Assembly (NCBI GenBank): GCA_016191815.1
Contig: JACPVI010000082.1
Location: forward strand, 1-64,000
Source: Myxococcales bacterium
Lineage (GTDB): Bacteria > Myxococcota > Myxococcia > Myxococcales > Myxococcaceae
Length of the DNA stretch: 64,000 bases
Reading direction: 5' to 3'
The notes beneath the pieces were generated by a model. It worked only from the letters and a program-made list of their open reading frames with translations. It ran no database searches and had not been told where the DNA came from. The translations under genes were made by a program, and so were the position numbers. Shown here one piece after another: positions 7,621-18,589 of the stretch; the stretch's first letter is position 1; every line of letters starts with the position of its first letter.

Positions 7621-9279
7621 ATGCCCTCGAGCCTGCACGGCCCCATGCACGAGGGCGCCGGCGCCACCTTGAGGGTTTGGGCGCCGCGCGCCCCGGCGCT
7701 TTGGGTTCGGCATGGCGGCCGGGCGATTCCGATGGCCAGGGCGCAGGACGGTTTCTTCGTCTGCCCGGAGAGGCTGCCCGAAGGAGCGAGCTACGCGTAC
7801 CAGTTTCCGGACGGGCGCACCCTGCCGGATCCGTGCTCCCGGCGACAGCGGGACGGCGTCCACGCCGCCTCTCAGCTCTTCGATCCGCGAAGACACGAGT
7901 GGACCGACGAAGGCTGGCGAGGGTTGCCGCTGGAGGAGCTGGTCTTCTACGAGCTGCACGTGGGGACCTTCACCCACGAGGGCACGCTCGGCGCGGCGGC
8001 ATCGAGGCTTGAGGACTTGGTCGAACTGGGCGTGAGCTGCGTCGAGCTGATGCCCTTGCAGCCATTCGCCGGCGCACGTAACTGGGGTTACGACGGAGTC
8101 TGTCCCTTCGCGGTGCACGAGGCCTACGGCGGGCCCGCGGCGCTCCAGCGCTTCGTCGATCGCGCCCACGCGTTGGGCCTCGCGGTGTGTCTCGACGTCG
8201 TCTACAACCACCTCGGGCCGGAGGGGAATTACCTCGGTGAGTTCGGCCCATATTTCAGCTCCGCCCATCACACTCCCTGGGGAGAAGGCCTCAACCTGGA
8301 CGGAGAGTCCTCCGCGCCGGTGAGGCGGTACATCGTCGAGGCGGCTGTGCAGTGGGTTCGCGACTTCCACGTGGACGTGCTGCGGCTAGACGCGGTGCAC
8401 GCCTTTGCCGACGACAGCCTTCGCCACATCGTCCGGGAGCTGTGCGACGAGGTGGCCGCCTGCGCCTCCCTCTGTGGGCGCAGGGTGCACGTGATCGCGG
8501 AGAGCGATCTCAACGACCGGCAGGTAGTCGAAAGCGGAGGAGGCTGGGGCTGCTCGGCGATGTGGGCCGACGACTTTCACCATGCGCTGCACGCGCTGGT
8601 GACCGGCGAGCGCAAGCATTACTACGTCGACTTCGGCCGGCCCGAGCAGCTCGCGCGCGCGCTGCGAGAAGGCTTCGCTTTCCAGGGCGAGCGCTCGGTC
8701 TTCCGGGGCCGGCCCCACGGCACGTCCCCCTCCGGGCTGCCGCCGTTCCGCTTCGTGGCGGCGGCGCAGAACCACGACCAGATCGGCAACCGGCCGTGCG
8801 GCGAGAGGCTGTCGGCGCTCTTGCCCTTCGAGGCGCTCCAGCCGATCGCGGCGCTGACGATCCTCGGGCCGGCCCTGCCGCTGCTCTTCATGGGAGAGGA
8901 GTACGGCGAGGAGCGGCCGTTCCTCTTCTTCACCAGCCACTCGGATCCGGCCCTCGCCCGCTCGGTCACGGAGGGAAGGAAGCGGGAGCATATCGCCCGC
9001 GCGCCGGAGGTTTGCGACCCGCAGTCTCCAGACTCGTTCGAACGCTCCAAGCTGAGCCAGCGGCGCGACGGGCGAAACGGCCGATTGCGAGAGGAGTACC
9101 GCTCCTTGCTCCGCATCCGGCGGCGGCACCTCGCGGACATCGCTGGCGAATGGCCCCAGGTTTCCTTCGAGGGTACGCTGTTCCGCCTTCTGCGCCCAAC
9201 CCTGGAGGTGGAGGTCAACCTCTCGCCCGCGCCTTTCGGCGGGCTTGGCCCCTGGGGAGTGGAGGTTCGAGAGCGTTGA
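7621..9279 (+). CDS. treZ: Malto-oligosyltrehalose trehalohydrolase
   Basis: This 552-residue GH13 enzyme cleaves the terminal trehalose from maltooligosyl-trehalose. An N-terminal early-set domain (1-95) precedes the catalytic barrel. DVVYNHLGPEGNYL, the nucleophile Asp257 in VLRLDAVHA, the acid Glu294 in HVIAESD and QNHDQIGN are typical of TreZ. The partner TreY, which makes the substrate, is not in the window, although another trehalose-type enzyme (TreT-like) lies 2 kb away. The start follows AAGGGACCG. The stop overlaps the TTG start of the next gene. Confidence 0.92.
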   Translation: MPSSLHGPMHEGAGATLRVWAPRAPALWVRHGGRAIPMARAQDGFFVCPERLPEGASYAYQFPDGRTLPDPCSRRQRDGVHAASQLFDPRRHEWTDEGWRGLPLEELVFYELHVGTFTHEGTLGAAASRLEDLVELGVSCVELMPLQPFAGARNWGYDGVCPFAVHEAYGGPAALQRFVDRAHALGLAVCLDVVYNHLGPEGNYLGEFGPYFSSAHHTPWGEGLNLDGESSAPVRRYIVEAAVQWVRDFHVDVLRLDAVHAFADDSLRHIVRELCDEVAACASLCGRRVHVIAESDLNDRQVVESGGGWGCSAMWADDFHHALHALVTGERKHYYVDFGRPEQLARALREGFAFQGERSVFRGRPHGTSPSGLPPFRFVAAAQNHDQIGNRPCGERLSALLPFEALQPIAALTILGPALPLLFMGEEYGEERPFLFFTSHSDPALARSVTEGRKREHIARAPEVCDPQSPDSFERSKLSQRRDGRNGRLREEYRSLLRIRRRHLADIAGEWPQVSFEGTLFRLLRPTLEVEVNLSPAPFGGLGPWGVEVRER

Positions 9280-10888: not shown

Positions 10889-11167
10889 TCAGCCCGCCTC
10901 CAGCAGGCGGCGCCTGAACCGCGTTGTGCTGCCGAGGGTTTCGACCGCGGCCAGCTTGCGCACCAGGACGTTGCGCGAGGCCATGCGCTGAACGCCCACT
11001 GCGAGGGCGATGGTGACCACCGCCGGCAGGCCCTCCGGCACCACCGCCACCGCCAGGGAGATGGAGACCCACACCAACTCCACGCCGGGAACGCCTCGGA
11101 GGGCGCCCACTGCCGCGACCAGGGCGACCACTCCCAGGCACCACGCCATCAACGAGCGGCTGAGCAT
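10889..11167 (-). pseudogene. Remnant of a P-type cation-transporting ATPase (P2-like)
   Basis: The 92-codon frame contains the membrane block of P2-type ATPases: a helix, then [33 protein letters not shown] and AVETLGSTT. In intact pumps the last motif is followed within a few residues by the phosphorylated DKTGT; here it runs into [10 protein letters not shown] and stops. The actuator domain, phosphorylation site, nucleotide domain and remaining helices are absent, so it cannot pump ions. It starts 10 bases after the stop of the TreT-YHS gene. YHS domains occur at the front of some heavy-metal P-type pumps, so the stub and the fused YHS may be parts of one lost gene. Confidence 0.8.
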
Positions 11168-11176
11168 GGCCCTGCA

Positions 11177-12622
11177 TCAGGCGGGACCTGGCGCGCCGGC
11201 TCCCACCGCGCCGACCGCCGCGAGGTACCTCTCCGGTCGATGGAGGAAGGTCAGATGGCAAAGCTCGGAGCAGAAGCCAAACCGCCTGCCGTGGACTTCC
11301 GCGGTGAGCGGCGGCTCCTCGCCAAGGGACATCCCGCACACCGGGTCTCGACCCGCCGCGAGGTGCGCCGGCCGGGAGACCGCCTTGCCTCCCCAAAGCT
11401 TCCGCAGCAGCGACAGCTCGTTGAGCACCAGCCTGGGCAATAGGAAGTGCTCGCGCACTCTTTGCCGGCCGCTCTCGCCCAGCCGCCGGGCCCGCTCCGG
11501 GTCACCGAGCAGCGCCACCATCGCCTGTGCGCACTCCTCCACCGAGTCGACCAGAATCCCCCCAACTCCGTCCGCCATCTGGAGCGGGATGCCTCCGGTA
11601 CGGCCGGCCACCACCGGAGTGCCCTTCCACATCGACTCCGACACCACCAGGCCGAAGCCCTCGCGGATGGACTTCTGCACCACCACGTCCGAGAGCGTCT
11701 GGAAGGCGTTCACCTCCACGTTGCCGACGCCCACCAGGTTGGTGAAGACGTGAACCCTGGGGTCGCGCCGGGAGAGCTCGGCCAGCTCGCGGTAGACCTT
11801 CCACCCCTCCGGGTCGTCGAGGGCGAAGGAGCCCACCAGCGCGAGCTGGAGCCCGCTCACCGCCTCGCGCGCCATCCGGTAGGCGGCGACCACCCCTAGG
11901 GGGTCCTTCCACGGATCGAAGCGGGACACTTGGGTGATGAGCGGCCGGTCGGTGCGCACGCCGATCCACTCCAGGATGCGCTGGGCAGTGCCCTCCTCGA
12001 GCGTGAGGTTCTTCGGGCTCAGGGGATCGATCGCCGGAGGGACGAGCTGCACCGGCGAGATGGGGAAGTCGGGAGGGACGAAGTCCCCGAGGGTGAAGAT
12101 GGCGGCGTCGTATGCCCGCAGGAAGGGACGGAGGAATTCCCACACAGGAGGGTGCGGGTTGGAGGTGTCGATGTGGCAGCGCCAGATCCACTTCGCCTCG
12201 CCCTTGCCGCGAAACTCGGGCAAGGCTGCGGGCTGCGGATCGTGCACGAACACGAAGTCGTACTCCTCGGTGAAGGCGGCGGCGTTGAGCCGCGAGTTTT
12301 CGAGGTAGGTGGATTGCTCGGCTTGGCTGAGCGCGCGGGGCGCTCCCTGCAGCCCGTTGTGGATGAGCTTGGTGACCTGGAAGAACGACTCCCCGCCGCT
12401 GACGATGCGCCAGTGAGCGATCAGCCCGAGGTCGTTCAGCAATGGCACCACCGAGCGGAGCAGCTCGGAGACGCCTCCCCCGTAGGGCGTGGCGTTCACG
12501 TGGAGCACTCGCGCGCCGCGGAGCGGCCCCGCCTCCCTCCTGAGCCCATCGAGAAGGGCGTCGGGCGCGATCCCGCGGTAGGACTCCAGCTGCCTCTCAC
12601 CCACGTCCACCAGGTCGAGCAC
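11177..12622 (-). CDS. treT: TreT-like trehalose synthase (GT4) fused to a C-terminal YHS domain
   Basis: The start is set at GTG 12622, preceded by GGAGGG, giving VLDLVDVGERQLESY as in TreT relatives; upstream sequence is Arg/Pro-rich and unlike the family. Residues 1-410 are a GT-B fold GT4 enzyme: HVNATPYGGGVSELL (N-terminal loop), VSRFDPWKDP and REGFGLVVSE (donor-binding). TreT joins an NDP-glucose to glucose to form trehalose. Residues about 424-470 form a YHS domain with DPVCGM (Cys429) and FCSELC, a metal-binding unit usually found in metal transporters. The total is 481 residues. The domain fusion and the adjacent ATPase stub are unusual. Confidence 0.85.
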   Translation of the reverse strand: MLDLVDVGERQLESYRGIAPDALLDGLRREAGPLRGARVLHVNATPYGGGVSELLRSVVPLLNDLGLIAHWRIVSGGESFFQVTKLIHNGLQGAPRALSQAEQSTYLENSRLNAAAFTEEYDFVFVHDPQPAALPEFRGKGEAKWIWRCHIDTSNPHPPVWEFLRPFLRAYDAAIFTLGDFVPPDFPISPVQLVPPAIDPLSPKNLTLEEGTAQRILEWIGVRTDRPLITQVSRFDPWKDPLGVVAAYRMAREAVSGLQLALVGSFALDDPEGWKVYRELAELSRRDPRVHVFTNLVGVGNVEVNAFQTLSDVVVQKSIREGFGLVVSESMWKGTPVVAGRTGGIPLQMADGVGGILVDSVEECAQAMVALLGDPERARRLGESGRQRVREHFLLPRLVLNELSLLRKLWGGKAVSRPAHLAAGRDPVCGMSLGEEPPLTAEVHGRRFGFCSELCHLTFLHRPERYLAAVGAVGAGAPGPA

Positions 12623-12799
12623 CGATCCCTCCACCTCGCCAAGGCACCATGCGCATCGGCGCCGGCCGGGGCAGCTGTGCGGCCCTGGAGCTGCCGCCCG
12701 CTCCCCGAAACGGACGGCTGCCCTGCGCCCGGCCGGGCTGACGGCGCTTGCCCGGTCCCCTTCGCGCCCACAGCTTGAGCGGGCGAAAGGAGAAGAGCC

Positions 12800-13015
12800 A
12801 TGGCGGACCGGGATTGGGGGCACTGCATGCACTGCCGATATTTCGCGAGCCCGGCGAGAGTGCCGATGGCCGCCGAGGAGGCGCGCTGCGAGCAGCCGGA
12901 GCTGTCGCGCTACCAGCTCAAGGTGTTCGGCGCCAGCGGGTGCAATGGCTGGGAGCTGAGGCCTTCGCTCAGGGCGGCAGCGCAGCCAGAGGCCAGTGAG
13001 GCGGCGGCACCATGA
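12800..13015 (+). CDS. Small cysteine-rich protein (71 aa), possible metal site
   Basis: The protein starts after AAAGGAGAAGAGCC and overlaps the UspA gene by four bases (ATGA). Four cysteines occur as CMHC near residue 9, RCEQPEL near 30 and SGCNGWE near 48, a spacing compatible with one bound zinc or iron. Conserved-looking aromatic and Gly residues around the third and fourth Cys suggest a folded mini-domain. The Ala/Glu-rich tail is probably disordered. The family was not recognised; coupling to UspA suggests a stress-related role. Confidence 0.7.
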   Translation: MADRDWGHCMHCRYFASPARVPMAAEEARCEQPELSRYQLKVFGASGCNGWELRPSLRAAAQPEASEAAAP

Positions 13016-13434
13016 AGCGGCTGCTGGTGGCGGTGGACGGCTCGGAGCCCTCGCACCACGCGGTGCGCTACGCCGCCGCCCTGGCAGCGCCTTTCAAGGC
13101 CGAGATGACCCTGGCCTACGTGGTCACTCCGGTGGCGTACCCGTCGGAGTTCTACGGCATCACCACCGTCGATCTGGACCAGGCGATGAGCCGCTTCGGG
13201 AAGGCGGTGCTGGAGGAGGCCCAAAGGATCGCCAGGGAGGCGGGGGCCCAGGCGCGCACCCAGCTGCTCCTCGGCTCTCCGGCGGAGGCGCTGGCGGACG
13301 CGGCGGACGCCGGCGGCTTCGACCTGGTGGTGGTGGGAAACCGCGGGCGCGGAGCGGTGGCCAGGGTGCTCCTGGGGAGCGTCTCCGACCGGCTGGTGCA
13401 CATCTGCAGGAAGCCGGTCCTGGTGGTCCGCTGA
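13012..13434 (+). CDS. Universal stress protein, UspA family
   Basis: The 140-residue single-domain protein begins MKRLLVAVDGSE and has the ATP-binding signature GNRGRGAVARVLLGSVSD, matching G-x2-G-x9-G-S. It should therefore be an ATP-binding Usp. Such proteins are induced under starvation or oxidative stress. It is translationally coupled to the small Cys-rich protein upstream and ends four bases from the convergent rtcB. Confidence 0.93.
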   Translation: MKRLLVAVDGSEPSHHAVRYAAALAAPFKAEMTLAYVVTPVAYPSEFYGITTVDLDQAMSRFGKAVLEEAQRIAREAGAQARTQLLLGSPAEALADAADAGGFDLVVVGNRGRGAVARVLLGSVSDRLVHICRKPVLVVR

Positions 13435-13438
13435 CCCG

Positions 13439-14872
13439 TCAGCCCTTGAGCACACCGAGCGGCCTGAGCCGGGCGACCTTGGTCGCCACCCCGGCCCGGT
13501 GCACCACCTCCACTACGCGCTCCACGTCCTTGTAGGCCACCGGCGCCTCCTCGGCGAGCTCCGCGTTGGAAGGGCAGCGCACCACGATTCCTCGGGTCTC
13601 CAGCTCTCTGCGCAGCACTTCTCCGCGCACCTGGCGCTTCGCCGCGCTCCGGCTCATCGCTCGGCCGGCGCCGTGGCAGGTGCTGGAGAACGAGATGTCC
13701 GCCGAGGCGTCGGTGCCCACCAGCACGAACGAGGAGGTTCCCATGCTGCCGGGGATGAACACCGGCTGGCCTACTCCCCGGTAGGCGGGCGGAATCTCCT
13801 GGCTGGAGGGGCCGAAGGCGCGCGTCGCCCCCTTGCGGTGGATGCACAGCTCCCTTCCTCCGTAGCGTTCCAGCTTGGCGATGTTGTGGGCCACGTCGTA
13901 GACCACCCGGAGCCGTGCGCCCTCTTTGCCCAGCACCCGGCCGAACACCTCGCGGGCGCGGTGAGTGAGCACCTGCCGATTGGACCAAGCGAAGTTGGCC
14001 GCCGCGCACATCGCCGCGAAGTAGCGCTGGCCCTCGGGCGAGGAGAAGGGCGCGCAGGCGAGCTGCCGGTCAGGCAGGGTGAGGCCATGCCGCGCCAGCG
14101 ACTGGTCCATCGACCGCACGTAGTCGGTGCAGATCTGGTGTCCCAGCCCCCGGGAGCCGGTGTGGATGAGGAGGGTGACCTGTCCCTCCGCGAGCCCGAG
14201 CGAACGCGCCGCGCCCAGGTCGAACACCTCGTCCACCGACTGCACCTCCAGGAAGTGGTTGCCGCCCCCGAGGGTGCCGAGCTGGTCCGCGCCGCGCTGC
14301 TTGGCCCTCTCGGAGACGCAGCCGGCCTCGGCTCCGGAGAGGCTCCCCCGCGACTCGATCAGCTCGAGATCCTCCTCGAGTCCCAGTCCCAGCTCCCGCA
14401 CCAGGTAGGGCACGCCTTCTTCGAGGACCCGGTCCAGCTCCCCGTGCGAGAGCGAGAGCCGTCCGTGACGGCCGTAGCCGGTGGGCACGCTCCGGCTCAG
14501 CTCGTGGACCACCTGCTCCAGCCGGTCGTCCAGCTCCTCCCGGCGAAGCTCGCAGGCGAGCAGCCGGACGCCACAGTTGATGTCGAAGCCGATGCCGCCC
14601 GGGGAGATGACTCCGTCCGGGAGCACCGTGCCCGCCACCCCTCCCACCGGGAAGCCGTAGCCCTCGTGCATGTCCGGCATCCCGATCGCCTGGCGGGTGA
14701 TGCCCGGCAGCGTCGCCACGTTGACCAGCTGCTCGAGGCTCTTGTCCCGGCGGATCTGCTCCAGGAGCGCTGCGTCCGCCAAGACCCGGGCGGGGACGCG
14801 CATGTCCTCGCGGAAGCTCTTGTCCACCTCGTACATCACCGGGCCGATCTGCTTGAGCGGTGGGGGTCCCAT
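13439..14872 (-). CDS. rtcB: RNA-splicing ligase RtcB
   Basis: The 477-residue protein is a complete RtcB. It has GMPDMHEGYGFPVGG, the metal site GFDINCGVRL (Asp97, Cys100), GGGNHFLEV, and CHGAGRAMSR, which carries the histidine that is guanylylated. RtcB joins RNA 2',3'-cyclic phosphate or 3'-phosphate ends to 5'-OH ends using GTP and Mn2+. Archease lies six bases upstream in the same operon, as in many genomes. No rtcR or rtcA is present here, so regulation by the usual sigma54 activator cannot be shown from this window. Confidence 0.95.
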   Translation of the reverse strand: MGPPPLKQIGPVMYEVDKSFREDMRVPARVLADAALLEQIRRDKSLEQLVNVATLPGITRQAIGMPDMHEGYGFPVGGVAGTVLPDGVISPGGIGFDINCGVRLLACELRREELDDRLEQVVHELSRSVPTGYGRHGRLSLSHGELDRVLEEGVPYLVRELGLGLEEDLELIESRGSLSGAEAGCVSERAKQRGADQLGTLGGGNHFLEVQSVDEVFDLGAARSLGLAEGQVTLLIHTGSRGLGHQICTDYVRSMDQSLARHGLTLPDRQLACAPFSSPEGQRYFAAMCAAANFAWSNRQVLTHRAREVFGRVLGKEGARLRVVYDVAHNIAKLERYGGRELCIHRKGATRAFGPSSQEIPPAYRGVGQPVFIPGSMGTSSFVLVGTDASADISFSSTCHGAGRAMSRSAAKRQVRGEVLRRELETRGIVVRCPSNAELAEEAPVAYKDVERVVEVVHRAGVATKVARLRPLGVLKG

Positions 14873-14878
14873 GTCGCC

Positions 14879-15313
14879 TCACACGTCCAGGACCAGCGTC
14901 GCCGAGTAGCCGCCGGGCCCTTCGGAGATCTCCAGCCGGTGGAAGGTGGCCGCCTTCACCGCGGTGCGCAGCGAGTCGGGCTCCGCCCCCCGCACCCGTG
15001 CCGAGAGCGCGCCTCCCTCCACTCGCTCCACCTCCAGCTCCGAGTACACCTTCTTCCGCGTCTCCGAGAGGAAGATCAGCTCGTTCACGAAGTCCGCGAG
15101 CAGCGTCTGTCGGTCCGGCGCCTCGAGCTGCACCCTCTCGGCCTGCCCCTTGGGCACAGGCGGCTCACCGGCTAGCAGCTCGGCCAGGGCTCTCCCCGCC
15201 TCGGCGAACAGCCCCTCGAGGCTCGGCGCTTCCAGGCGCACGAGCACCTCCCCGGTGTGCTCCTCGAACGAGTGGCGGGGCCTCCGCTCGGCTTGCTGGT
15301 TGGGACCGGCCAT
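14879..15313 (-). CDS. Archease, RtcB cofactor
   Basis: The protein (144 residues from ATG 15313) matches archease: an N-terminal FEEHTGEVLVRLEA, a central EAPDRQTLLADFVNELIFLSE and the C-terminal VKAATFHRLEI followed by TLVLDV. Archease speeds RtcB guanylylation and multiple turnover. Another ATG at 15328 is possible; 15313 is preferred because a GGGGGTGG lies just upstream. It is the promoter-proximal gene of the archease-rtcB pair. Confidence 0.88.
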   Translation of the reverse strand: MAGPNQQAERRPRHSFEEHTGEVLVRLEAPSLEGLFAEAGRALAELLAGEPPVPKGQAERVQLEAPDRQTLLADFVNELIFLSETRKKVYSELEVERVEGGALSARVRGAEPDSLRTAVKAATFHRLEISEGPGGYSATLVLDV

Positions 15314-15377
15314 GCGACCCACCCCCATCTTGCACCACCGGCGCTGCCGTCTCCACGTTGCTCATGGAGGAGTTCAA

Positions 15378-17209: not shown

Positions 17210-18589
17210 TTAGTTGATTCCCGGGCCGCAGGTCCCACCGCTGCACAGGCCGGAGGCGCACTGCCCGCCGCTGGTGCAGGGGCTGCCATCCGGTTGGCCG
17301 CCGGAGCCGCCCTCGCACAGGCCATTGGTGCAGCGGCCCGACTCGCATTCCCCGCCGCTGGCGCAGGGGCTCCCGCCCGGCTTTCCGCCCGTGCCGCCTT
17401 CGCAGAAGCCGTTGGTACAGAGGGCGGAAGAGCACTCGCTCCAGTCGGTGCAGGGGCTGCCCCCCGGCTTCCCGCCCGAGCCGCCCTCGCACAGCCCCGA
17501 GGTGCACTGCCCGGAGGCGCACTGGCCTCCGCTCGTGCAGGGGCGGCCGGCTCCTCCCGCCTCGGGGAAGGCGGCGCAAGCTCCGGCGATCACCTTGATC
17601 ACCTGCTCCAGCCCGTCCTCCAGCCGGCCCGCGCAGAGGTCCCAGAAGAGGCCGCGGCCCTGCGCGGCGAACAACTCGGTGACGGCCTTGAGCTTCACCG
17701 CCTCCTTCGCGTTGCCGTACACGCCGGTGCAGGCGGCCTTTCCCCCGATGCCCAGGAAGACCATCCGGCTGACGTCTCCTCCCTTGACCGCGACCAGGCG
17801 GTCGTAGACCTGCTGGGCGGTGCGATTGGGGGTGGGCTGCTCGTCCTCGTCGGTGATGGCGACCACCACCAGCACCGCGTCGTCGCGCAGGAAGCCCGCG
17901 TTGGGTCCAGTGAGCATCGGCGGCTCCAGGGAGGTCGCCGCCGCCGACGCCGGCTGCTCGTCGTCGTTGGAGCCGGTGCACTGCATGTCGCTGGAGGTGA
18001 TGTCCCCGACACAGGCGAACTCGGACACCAGGCTGGTGGAGTTGCCGTCCATCCACACCTTGCCGCTCTGGAAGCCGCAGTCGCCGCCCAGCCCGCGGGT
18101 GTGGAAGTTCGCCGGGAACGGGCAGGCGTCGAGCACGCCCACCCGAAAGTCTTGCAGACCGTCGATTCGCTTGAGGACCTGCGCGAACGCGGGGAAGACG
18201 ATCGAACGCATCGCGGACTTCTCTTGCTGCATGCTGCTCGAGTTGTCGACCGAGATGACCACGTCGAGGTGCTTGCAGCCCGAGCGGCGGACGCTCGAGT
18301 CCACGCAGACGCCGTTGGTGCAGCGCCCGGAGGTACAGTCGGCGGCCTGGACACAGCTTCCGCCGGTGGGAAGCCCGTTCGGCACCGCCGCACAGGAGCC
18401 CGATACGCACCGGGCGGAGACGCACTGGCCGGCGGCCGTGCAGGGAGCGCCGGCCGGGGCCCCGTTGCAGGCGCTCCCAGAGCAGGGGGTAGCGTCGCAG
18501 TTGGGCCCAAAGCAAGCCTCCCCGAGTCCGCCTCCACAAGAGCAGCCGCTGGCCAGGGTCGCGGCGAGAGCGATGCAAGCGATTCGCAT
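17210..18589 (-). CDS. Cys-rich lipoprotein with von Willebrand factor A domain
   Basis: The 459-residue protein begins with a lipoprotein signal (lipobox LASGC, Cys16). Residues 25-100 contain two Cys-rich units, about 105-330 is a vWA-type domain with an intact metal site start DNSSS (Asp115, Ser117, Ser119), and the C-terminus has four units of a 29-residue Cys-rich repeat. It is probably an envelope protein facing outward. A GGAG eight bases before ATG 18589 supports the start. It lies downstream of, and in the same orientation as, the kinase/activator operon, 194 bases away. Confidence 0.8.
   Translation of the reverse strand: MRIACIALAATLASGCSCGGGLGEACFGPNCDATPCSGSACNGAPAGAPCTAAGQCVSARCVSGSCAAVPNGLPTGGSCVQAADCTSGRCTNGVCVDSSVRRSGCKHLDVVISVDNSSSMQQEKSAMRSIVFPAFAQVLKRIDGLQDFRVGVLDACPFPANFHTRGLGGDCGFQSGKVWMDGNSTSLVSEFACVGDITSSDMQCTGSNDDEQPASAAATSLEPPMLTGPNAGFLRDDAVLVVVAITDEDEQPTPNRTAQQVYDRLVAVKGGDVSRMVFLGIGGKAACTGVYGNAKEAVKLKAVTELFAAQGRGLFWDLCAGRLEDGLEQVIKVIAGACAAFPEAGGAGRPCTSGGQCASGQCTSGLCEGGSGGKPGGSPCTDWSECSSALCTNGFCEGGTGGKPGGSPCASGGECESGRCTNGLCEGGSGGQPDGSPCTSGGQCASGLCSGGTCGPGIN
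17213..17548 (-). repeat. Four coding repeats of 87 bp (29 residues), Cys/Gly-rich
   Basis: Within the vWA lipoprotein, three full units and one 25-residue unit follow the pattern GxPCxxxxxCxxxxCxxGxCEGGxGGxPx. They encode four Cys each and Gly-rich spacers. Unit variation is at codon level, so the repeat is old or under selection. Confidence 0.85.

What the first reader, a model, noticed from the sequence alone, without database searches (positions are those of the whole stretch)
11177..12622. TreT-like glycosyltransferase fused to a YHS metal-binding domain
A complete GT4 trehalose synthase carries a C-terminal YHS domain with three Cys. YHS domains usually sit in metal transporters. A trehalose enzyme with a metal-sensing appendage would be new, and a P-type ATPase stub follows it directly, suggesting either a gene collision or a formerly linked system.
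Basis: partly seen in the sequence, partly recalled or inferred. Interest (0 to 1): 0.6.

Follow-up and report, generated by a model that had tools for sequence, protein, structure and literature searches.

The report
Trehalose synthase with metal-binding tail domain
This gene makes a trehalose-synthesising enzyme that carries a small metal-binding (YHS) domain on its tail; the same combination recurs in several bacterial phyla, often beside copper/heavy-metal and stress genes and on plasmids, so it may be a metal-tuned stress enzyme rather than an accident, although metal control has not been shown.

Summary
On the minus strand, 11177-12622 encodes a complete 481-aa TreT-type GT4 enzyme (about 44% identical to solved archaeal TreT; catalytic Glu kept) ending in a genuine in-frame YHS domain. 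The domain scores above the Pfam cut-off, and a model of it alone resembles the YHS region of toluene/phenol monooxygenases and, weakly, ribosomal L24e.

It is not a one-off. I found 15 other distinct sequences with the same architecture in Myxococcota, Acidobacteriota, Pseudomonadota, Actinomycetota and Sphaerobacter. The putative metal ligands Asp-Cys-Cys-Cys are invariant in 16/16. All lie in one TreT subclade that also has members without YHS. The gene is patchy (2 of 395 Streptomycetaceae genomes) and occurs on large Streptomyces plasmids, often beside a GalT-like gene, copper-type ATPases (three ending in YHS), FtsH and universal stress proteins.

The downstream ATPase piece is separate: an ~80-aa decayed fragment of a calcium/cation type II ATPase, probably the relic of an older TreT-ATPase gene pair; the YHS did not come from it.

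Most likely function: metal (probably copper) binding to YHS tunes trehalose synthesis, as shown for the Mycobacterium phlei YHS-adenylyl cyclase. Regulation is inferred. No paper on this fusion was found.

The parts
11177..12622 (-). TreT-like GT4 glycosyltransferase with C-terminal YHS domain, 481 aa plus stop
11393..12622 (-). GT4 TreT catalytic part, residues 1-410
   Evidence: Pfam TreT_GT1 and Glycos_transf_1; 44% identity and Z 44-47 to TreT structures 6zj4 and 2x6q
11660..11662 (-). codon of E321, aligned with E326 of P. horikoshii TreT, the residue mutated in 2xmp
   Evidence: alignment; invariant in 29 sequences
11351..11392 (-). variable linker, residues 411-424
   Evidence: 29% mean pairwise identity across 16 fusions
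11210..11350 (-). YHS domain, residues 425-471
   Evidence: Pfam PF04945; model of domain alone matches YHS region of toluene/phenol monooxygenases and weakly L24e
11345..11347 (-). D426 codon, putative metal ligand
   Evidence: invariant 16/16; ligand role by analogy to PMC4626032
11336..11338 (-). C429 codon, putative metal ligand
   Evidence: invariant 16/16
11270..11272 (-). C451 codon, putative metal ligand
   Evidence: invariant 16/16
11258..11260 (-). C455 codon, putative metal ligand
   Evidence: invariant 16/16
10889..11167 (-). decayed internal fragment of a type II (calcium/cation) P-type ATPase, about 82 recognisable residues
7621..9279 (+). neighbouring TreZ (malto-oligosyltrehalose trehalohydrolase); another trehalose gene, link to TreT-YHS unproven
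   Evidence: NCBIfam TIGR02402 645 bits, cut-off 538.8
13012..13434 (+). divergent universal stress protein; the USP family is also near other TreT-YHS genes
   Evidence: Pfam Usp

Best explanation
A TreT-type enzyme that joins glucose from a nucleotide sugar to glucose, making trehalose, and carries at its C-terminus a YHS domain that binds a transition metal, most likely copper, through D426, C429, C451 and C455. Metal binding changes the enzyme's activity or stability, so trehalose is made (or its turnover shifted) under metal or oxidative stress. The fused gene is an accessory gene, moved between phyla in metal/stress islands and on plasmids. Shown here: the fusion, its recurrence, the invariant ligands, catalytic Glu conservation and the gene neighbourhoods. 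Inferred: trehalose as product, metal identity, horizontal movement, and control of the enzyme by the metal. The downstream ATPase piece is a relic of an old neighbour and plays no part.
For: Fusion in 16 distinct sequences from at least five phyla, all in one TreT subclade (99/93 support). D, C, C, C plus G, F, S, F invariant in 16/16 while mean column conservation of the domain is 0.55, and dN/dS of YHS is 0.18-0.28 in the three closest Streptomyces pairs. Fold: whole model pLDDT 89.6, TreT structures top, YHS-alone model led by YHS-bearing monooxygenases. Context within 8 kb, fused against unfused: P1B ATPase 6/16 vs 1/69, FtsH 6/16 vs 1/69, USP 5/16 vs 0/69, GalT-like 9/16 vs 2/69. In L024, L029 and L060 the nearby CPC-type ATPase also ends in YHS. 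In G109 the fusion is on a 147-kb contig, separate from its main contig, with CusA/CzcA and a DUF326 protein. S. mirabilis pI, which carries the fusion, is a metal-resistance plasmid (PMC9195940). The window's genome already has TreY, OtsA-type and TreS genes, which argues for a conditional role. Precedent: a C-terminal YHS makes the M. phlei adenylyl cyclase copper-activated (PMC4626032).
Against: No biochemistry: neither metal binding nor any effect on activity has been measured. YHS in toluene-4-monooxygenase holds no metal in the crystal (PMC4626032). Members without YHS exist inside the subclade, one 69% identical (L007), so the domain is dispensable for the enzyme. In the window, Anaeromyxobacter and Sphaerobacter loci no intact metal ATPase was found within 8 kb. 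The neighbourhood counts use queries drawn mostly from fused loci and several loci are close relatives, so the p-values are inflated. dN/dS of YHS is 0.8-1.1 in three more distant pairs.
Confidence: 0.5

Rival explanations
1. The YHS domain is a metal sink, chaperone-docking or stabilising module: it binds metal or another protein (for instance the YHS-bearing ATPase) without switching catalysis, and the enzyme is an ordinary stress-island trehalose synthase.
For: Invariant ligands fit any metal-binding role. YHS-bearing CPC ATPase sits nearby in three Streptomyces loci. YHS in toluene-4-monooxygenase has no known regulatory role (PMC4626032). The linker is variable in length and sequence.
Against: The one tested C-terminal YHS on an enzyme does switch catalysis (PMC4626032).
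Confidence: 0.28
2. The YHS acts through redox or zinc: the cysteines hold structural Zn or form disulphides and report oxidative stress rather than metal level.
For: Cys-rich small domain; neighbourhoods rich in general stress genes such as USP, FtsH, HtpX and PspA.
Against: An Asp plus three Cys is the set proposed for metal binding in YHS/TRASH (PMC4626032). In M. phlei cyclase, copper activation was lost when EDTA was added, so it was not simple oxidation (PMC4626032).
Confidence: 0.12
3. Evolutionary accident without function: a YHS was fused once and hitch-hikes, or in the window is a readthrough into a decayed ATPase gene.
For: Frequent absence in close relatives; a decayed ATPase lies directly downstream.
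Against: 16 distinct fused sequences across phyla with all four ligands invariant. The ATPase stub is type II, has no YHS and starts after a proper TreT stop.
Confidence: 0.06
4. The GT part is not a trehalose synthase but makes another glucosyl disaccharide, or runs in reverse to feed the GalT-like partner (compatible with any of the YHS roles above).
For: A GalT-like gene follows directly in nine fused loci, HPH motif intact in the seven checked. Score against the Thermococcales TreT equivalog model is far under its cut-off (391.5 vs 775).
Against: 44% identity and Z 44-47 to two TreT enzymes, far above the next GT4 (about Z 30); catalytic Glu kept.
Confidence: 0.15

Closest known systems
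TreT (trehalose glycosyltransferring synthase) of Pyrococcus horikoshii and Thermoproteus uzoniensis
   Same: Whole GT4 fold, 44% identity over about 400 residues, E326 equivalent
   Different: The archaeal chains end at about residue 400-416 without YHS; substrate and direction of the present protein untested
Mycobacterium phlei class IIIc adenylyl cyclase with C-terminal YHS (PMC4626032)
   Same: An enzyme with a YHS domain fused at its C-terminus by a short linker, with one Asp and three Cys as proposed ligands; copper on-switch shown there
   Different: Unrelated catalytic domain and product; here no metal effect has been measured
Copper/heavy-metal P1B ATPases with terminal YHS
   Same: C-terminal YHS with same motif, encoded within about 8 kb of TreT-YHS in L024, L029, L060
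   Different: Membrane transporter. Its YHS is 39-46% identical to the TreT YHS of the same loci, no closer than to TreT YHS of other phyla, so recent copying from the neighbour is not shown

Membership tests
TreT / GT4 trehalose synthase | TreT N-terminal domain followed by GT4 C-terminal domain | tested here: met
   Pfam PF21269 and PF00534
TreT / GT4 trehalose synthase | Catalytic Glu (E326 in P. horikoshii) | tested here: met
   E321, invariant in 29 sequences
TreT / GT4 trehalose synthase | NCBIfam Thermococcales TreT equivalog cut-off | tested here: not met
   391.5 bits against 775; the model is tuned to Thermococcales, so filed as TreT-like only
TreT / GT4 trehalose synthase | Makes trehalose from NDP-glucose and glucose | not testable with these tools
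   needs an enzyme assay
YHS domain (PF04945) | Profile match over curated cut-off | tested here: met
   36.8 bits against 30.3; 41.3 bits in the genome search
YHS domain (PF04945) | One Asp and three Cys as metal ligands | tested here: met
   D426, C429, C451, C455, invariant in 16 fusions
YHS domain (PF04945) | YHS/TRASH fold | tested here: met
   Top Foldseek rows for the domain model are the YHS-bearing toluene/phenol monooxygenases, several at rmsd 0.5-0.7 over 27-30 residues, prob up to 0.98; E-values weak (0.1-0.7) because the domain is small
YHS-gated metal-sensor enzyme | Metal changes activity through YHS | not testable with these tools
   precedent only (PMC4626032)
P-type ATPase with YHS | Downstream ATPase is P1B type or carries YHS | tested here: not met
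   stub is type II, PMR1-like, without YHS

The most novel reading that the evidence does not exclude
A mobile, metal-gated trehalose synthase: copper or another transition metal bound to the YHS tail directly turns compatible-solute synthesis up in metal-stressed soil bacteria, linking metal sensing to protectant production in one protein without a regulator.
Probability: 0.42. Interest if true: 0.65.

Novelty: new variant of a known kind. Interest (0 to 1): 0.48.

Why it matters
Trehalose enzymes are usually described as responding to salt, heat or drying. A trehalose synthase with a conserved metal-binding tail, carried with heavy-metal resistance genes on plasmids, would tie metal stress directly to protectant synthesis. 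It would also give a second testable enzyme for the unanswered question of what YHS domains do. The prediction can be tested with one purified protein, a truncated version and Cys mutants.

Tried and rejected
Readthrough into the ATPase: rejected, TreT has its own stop, the stub is another ATPase class and has no YHS. YHS copied recently from the neighbouring YHS-ATPase in Streptomyces: not supported, identities 39-46% within locus, no higher than across loci. Regulator site upstream: only weak palindromes in 12560-12830, not pursued. A conserved partner in the 71-aa divergent ORF 12800-13015: no relatives in other loci, no Pfam or NCBIfam match. G109's 147-kb contig as a known plasmid: no close match among plasmid records, so plasmid status is only suspected. 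Literature: no paper in the library holds 'YHS domain' with both glycosyltransferase and trehalose, nor 'TRASH domain' with metal and trehalose. The main text of the pI paper does not mention glycosyltransferase or trehalose. The first gene-calling script had a strand error and was replaced.

Full report
What is there. The minus-strand frame 12622-11177 encodes 481 residues. Residues 1-410 are a complete TreT-type GT4 enzyme: Pfam TreT_GT1 5e-52 and Glycos_transf_1 4.7e-21, phmmer 1e-109 to 1e-111 to the TreT structures 2x6q, 2xa2 and 6zj4. E321 aligns with E326 of the P. horikoshii enzyme, the residue mutated in 2xmp, and is invariant in 29 relatives. Residues 426-468 match YHS at 36.8 bits, over the 30.3-bit cut-off. 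An AlphaFold2 model of the whole protein has mean pLDDT 89.6. Its structural matches are headed by TreT at Z 44-47, 44% identity, with other GT4 enzymes at Z about 30 and below. A model of the YHS part alone is headed by toluene/phenol monooxygenase hydroxylases, which carry a YHS domain, with ribosomal L24e lower down. E-values are weak because the domain is small, but several rows have rmsd 0.5-0.7 A over 27-30 residues.

The fusion is not a one-off. Full-length relatives with the YHS occur in the same class (L004, L005, L006) and on Streptomyces plasmids. A scan of genome contigs added Anaeromyxobacter oryzisoli (the same sequence as L005), a Pseudomonadota MAG, an Acidobacteriota MAG, Streptomyces, Glycomyces, two Amycolatopsis and two Sphaerobacter. 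In all there are 16 distinct fused sequences, the window included. D426, C429, C451 and C455 are invariant in all 16, along with G430, F450, S452 and F459, although the domain averages only 0.55 column conservation and the linker 0.29 pairwise identity. dN/dS of the YHS is 0.18-0.28 in the three closest Streptomyces pairs; in more distant pairs it scatters from 0.22 to 1.1.

History. In a tree of the GT part from 101 sequences all fused members fall in one 41-row clade (99/93), together with YHS-less members such as the Myxococcaceae chromosomal group, Solirubrobacterales and L007. The best tree needs 5 changes of the YHS label against 15.1 for shuffled labels; starred branches force at least 2. 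One gain with several losses, or a few gains, cannot be told apart. The gene is patchy: 2 of 395 Streptomycetaceae genomes, the query's own included. G109 carries both a fused copy on a 147-kb contig and a YHS-less copy on its main contig.

Neighbourhood. Within 8 kb of fused genes I find P1B-type ATPases in 6/16 loci (1/69 unfused), FtsH in 6/16 (1/69), USP in 5/16 (0/69) and a GalT-like gene in 9/16 (2/69). The GalT-like gene starts 16-73 bp downstream on the same strand in these nine and keeps its HPH motif in the seven sequences checked. These counts are indicative only: the probe proteins came mainly from fused loci and the Streptomyces loci are related. The CPC-type ATPases near the fusion in L024, L029 and L060 themselves end in a YHS domain; L029's is a copper/heavy-metal P1B ATPase. 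G109's contig has CusA/CzcA-type RND and membrane-fusion genes, an outer-membrane efflux protein and a DUF326 protein. Two annotated plasmid loci show heavy-metal ATPases and FtsH, with HtpX, PspA, a universal stress protein and mercuric reductase in the second. S. mirabilis pI is a documented metal-resistance plasmid (PMC9195940), though its main text does not discuss this gene. Not every locus fits: in the window, Anaeromyxobacter and Sphaerobacter loci no intact metal ATPase was found near.

The ATPase stub. The 10889-11167 frame holds about 82 residues of a type II ATPase (PMR1-type calcium 9.6e-20), cut before DKTGT, followed by an unrelated Uma2 gene. Intact type II ATPases lie directly downstream of YHS-less TreT in two Solirubrobacterales loci (L033 114 bp, L044 191 bp) and upstream in a Chloroflexota locus (L041, 392 bp). 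The stub is best read as a relic of that pairing. It is not the source of the YHS.

How it may work. The M. phlei adenylyl cyclase is the one tested enzyme with a C-terminal YHS that I found: 1-10 uM copper switches it on, only if YHS is present, and Zn, Fe, Cr, Co and Ni do not (PMC4626032). By analogy I propose that metal on the YHS tunes TreT activity. The own genome already encodes TreY, an OtsA-type enzyme and TreS, with a TreZ 1.9 kb away, so a conditional role is plausible. The metal, the direction of control and the product are all inferences.

Noticed in passing
7621-9279 +: A TreZ gene 1.9 kb from TreT-YHS; the genome's TreY lies on another contig (C23) beside a further amylase-family frame.
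   Followed up: partly
L105 8491-9513, L024 13504-14589 and seven other fused loci: A GalT-like nucleotidyltransferase follows TreT-YHS within 16-73 bp in Myxococcota and Actinomycetota; a likely functional partner that was not found beside the window's gene.
   Followed up: partly
L033, L044, L041: Intact type II P-type ATPase gene directly beside YHS-less TreT, same strand.
   Followed up: partly
L105 (G109:C2:95000-114900): 147-kb separate contig with two large RND efflux genes (one CusA/CzcA type), a DUF326 protein and TreT-YHS; possibly a plasmid.
   Followed up: partly
window 13439-14872 - and 14879-15328 -: RtcB RNA ligase beside TreT-YHS, with an archease-like ORF next to it (by eye); an RtcB homologue also lies 3.9 kb from TreT-YHS in Anaeromyxobacter, with an RtcR-domain ORF in the same locus.
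   Followed up: no
window 12800-13015 +: 71-aa Cys-containing ORF overlapping the USP gene start, no family match and no relatives in the loci held.
   Followed up: partly
window 17210-18589 -: Secreted-looking protein with Cys-rich 'GGSPC..GxC' repeats around a VWA-like middle (by eye).
   Followed up: no
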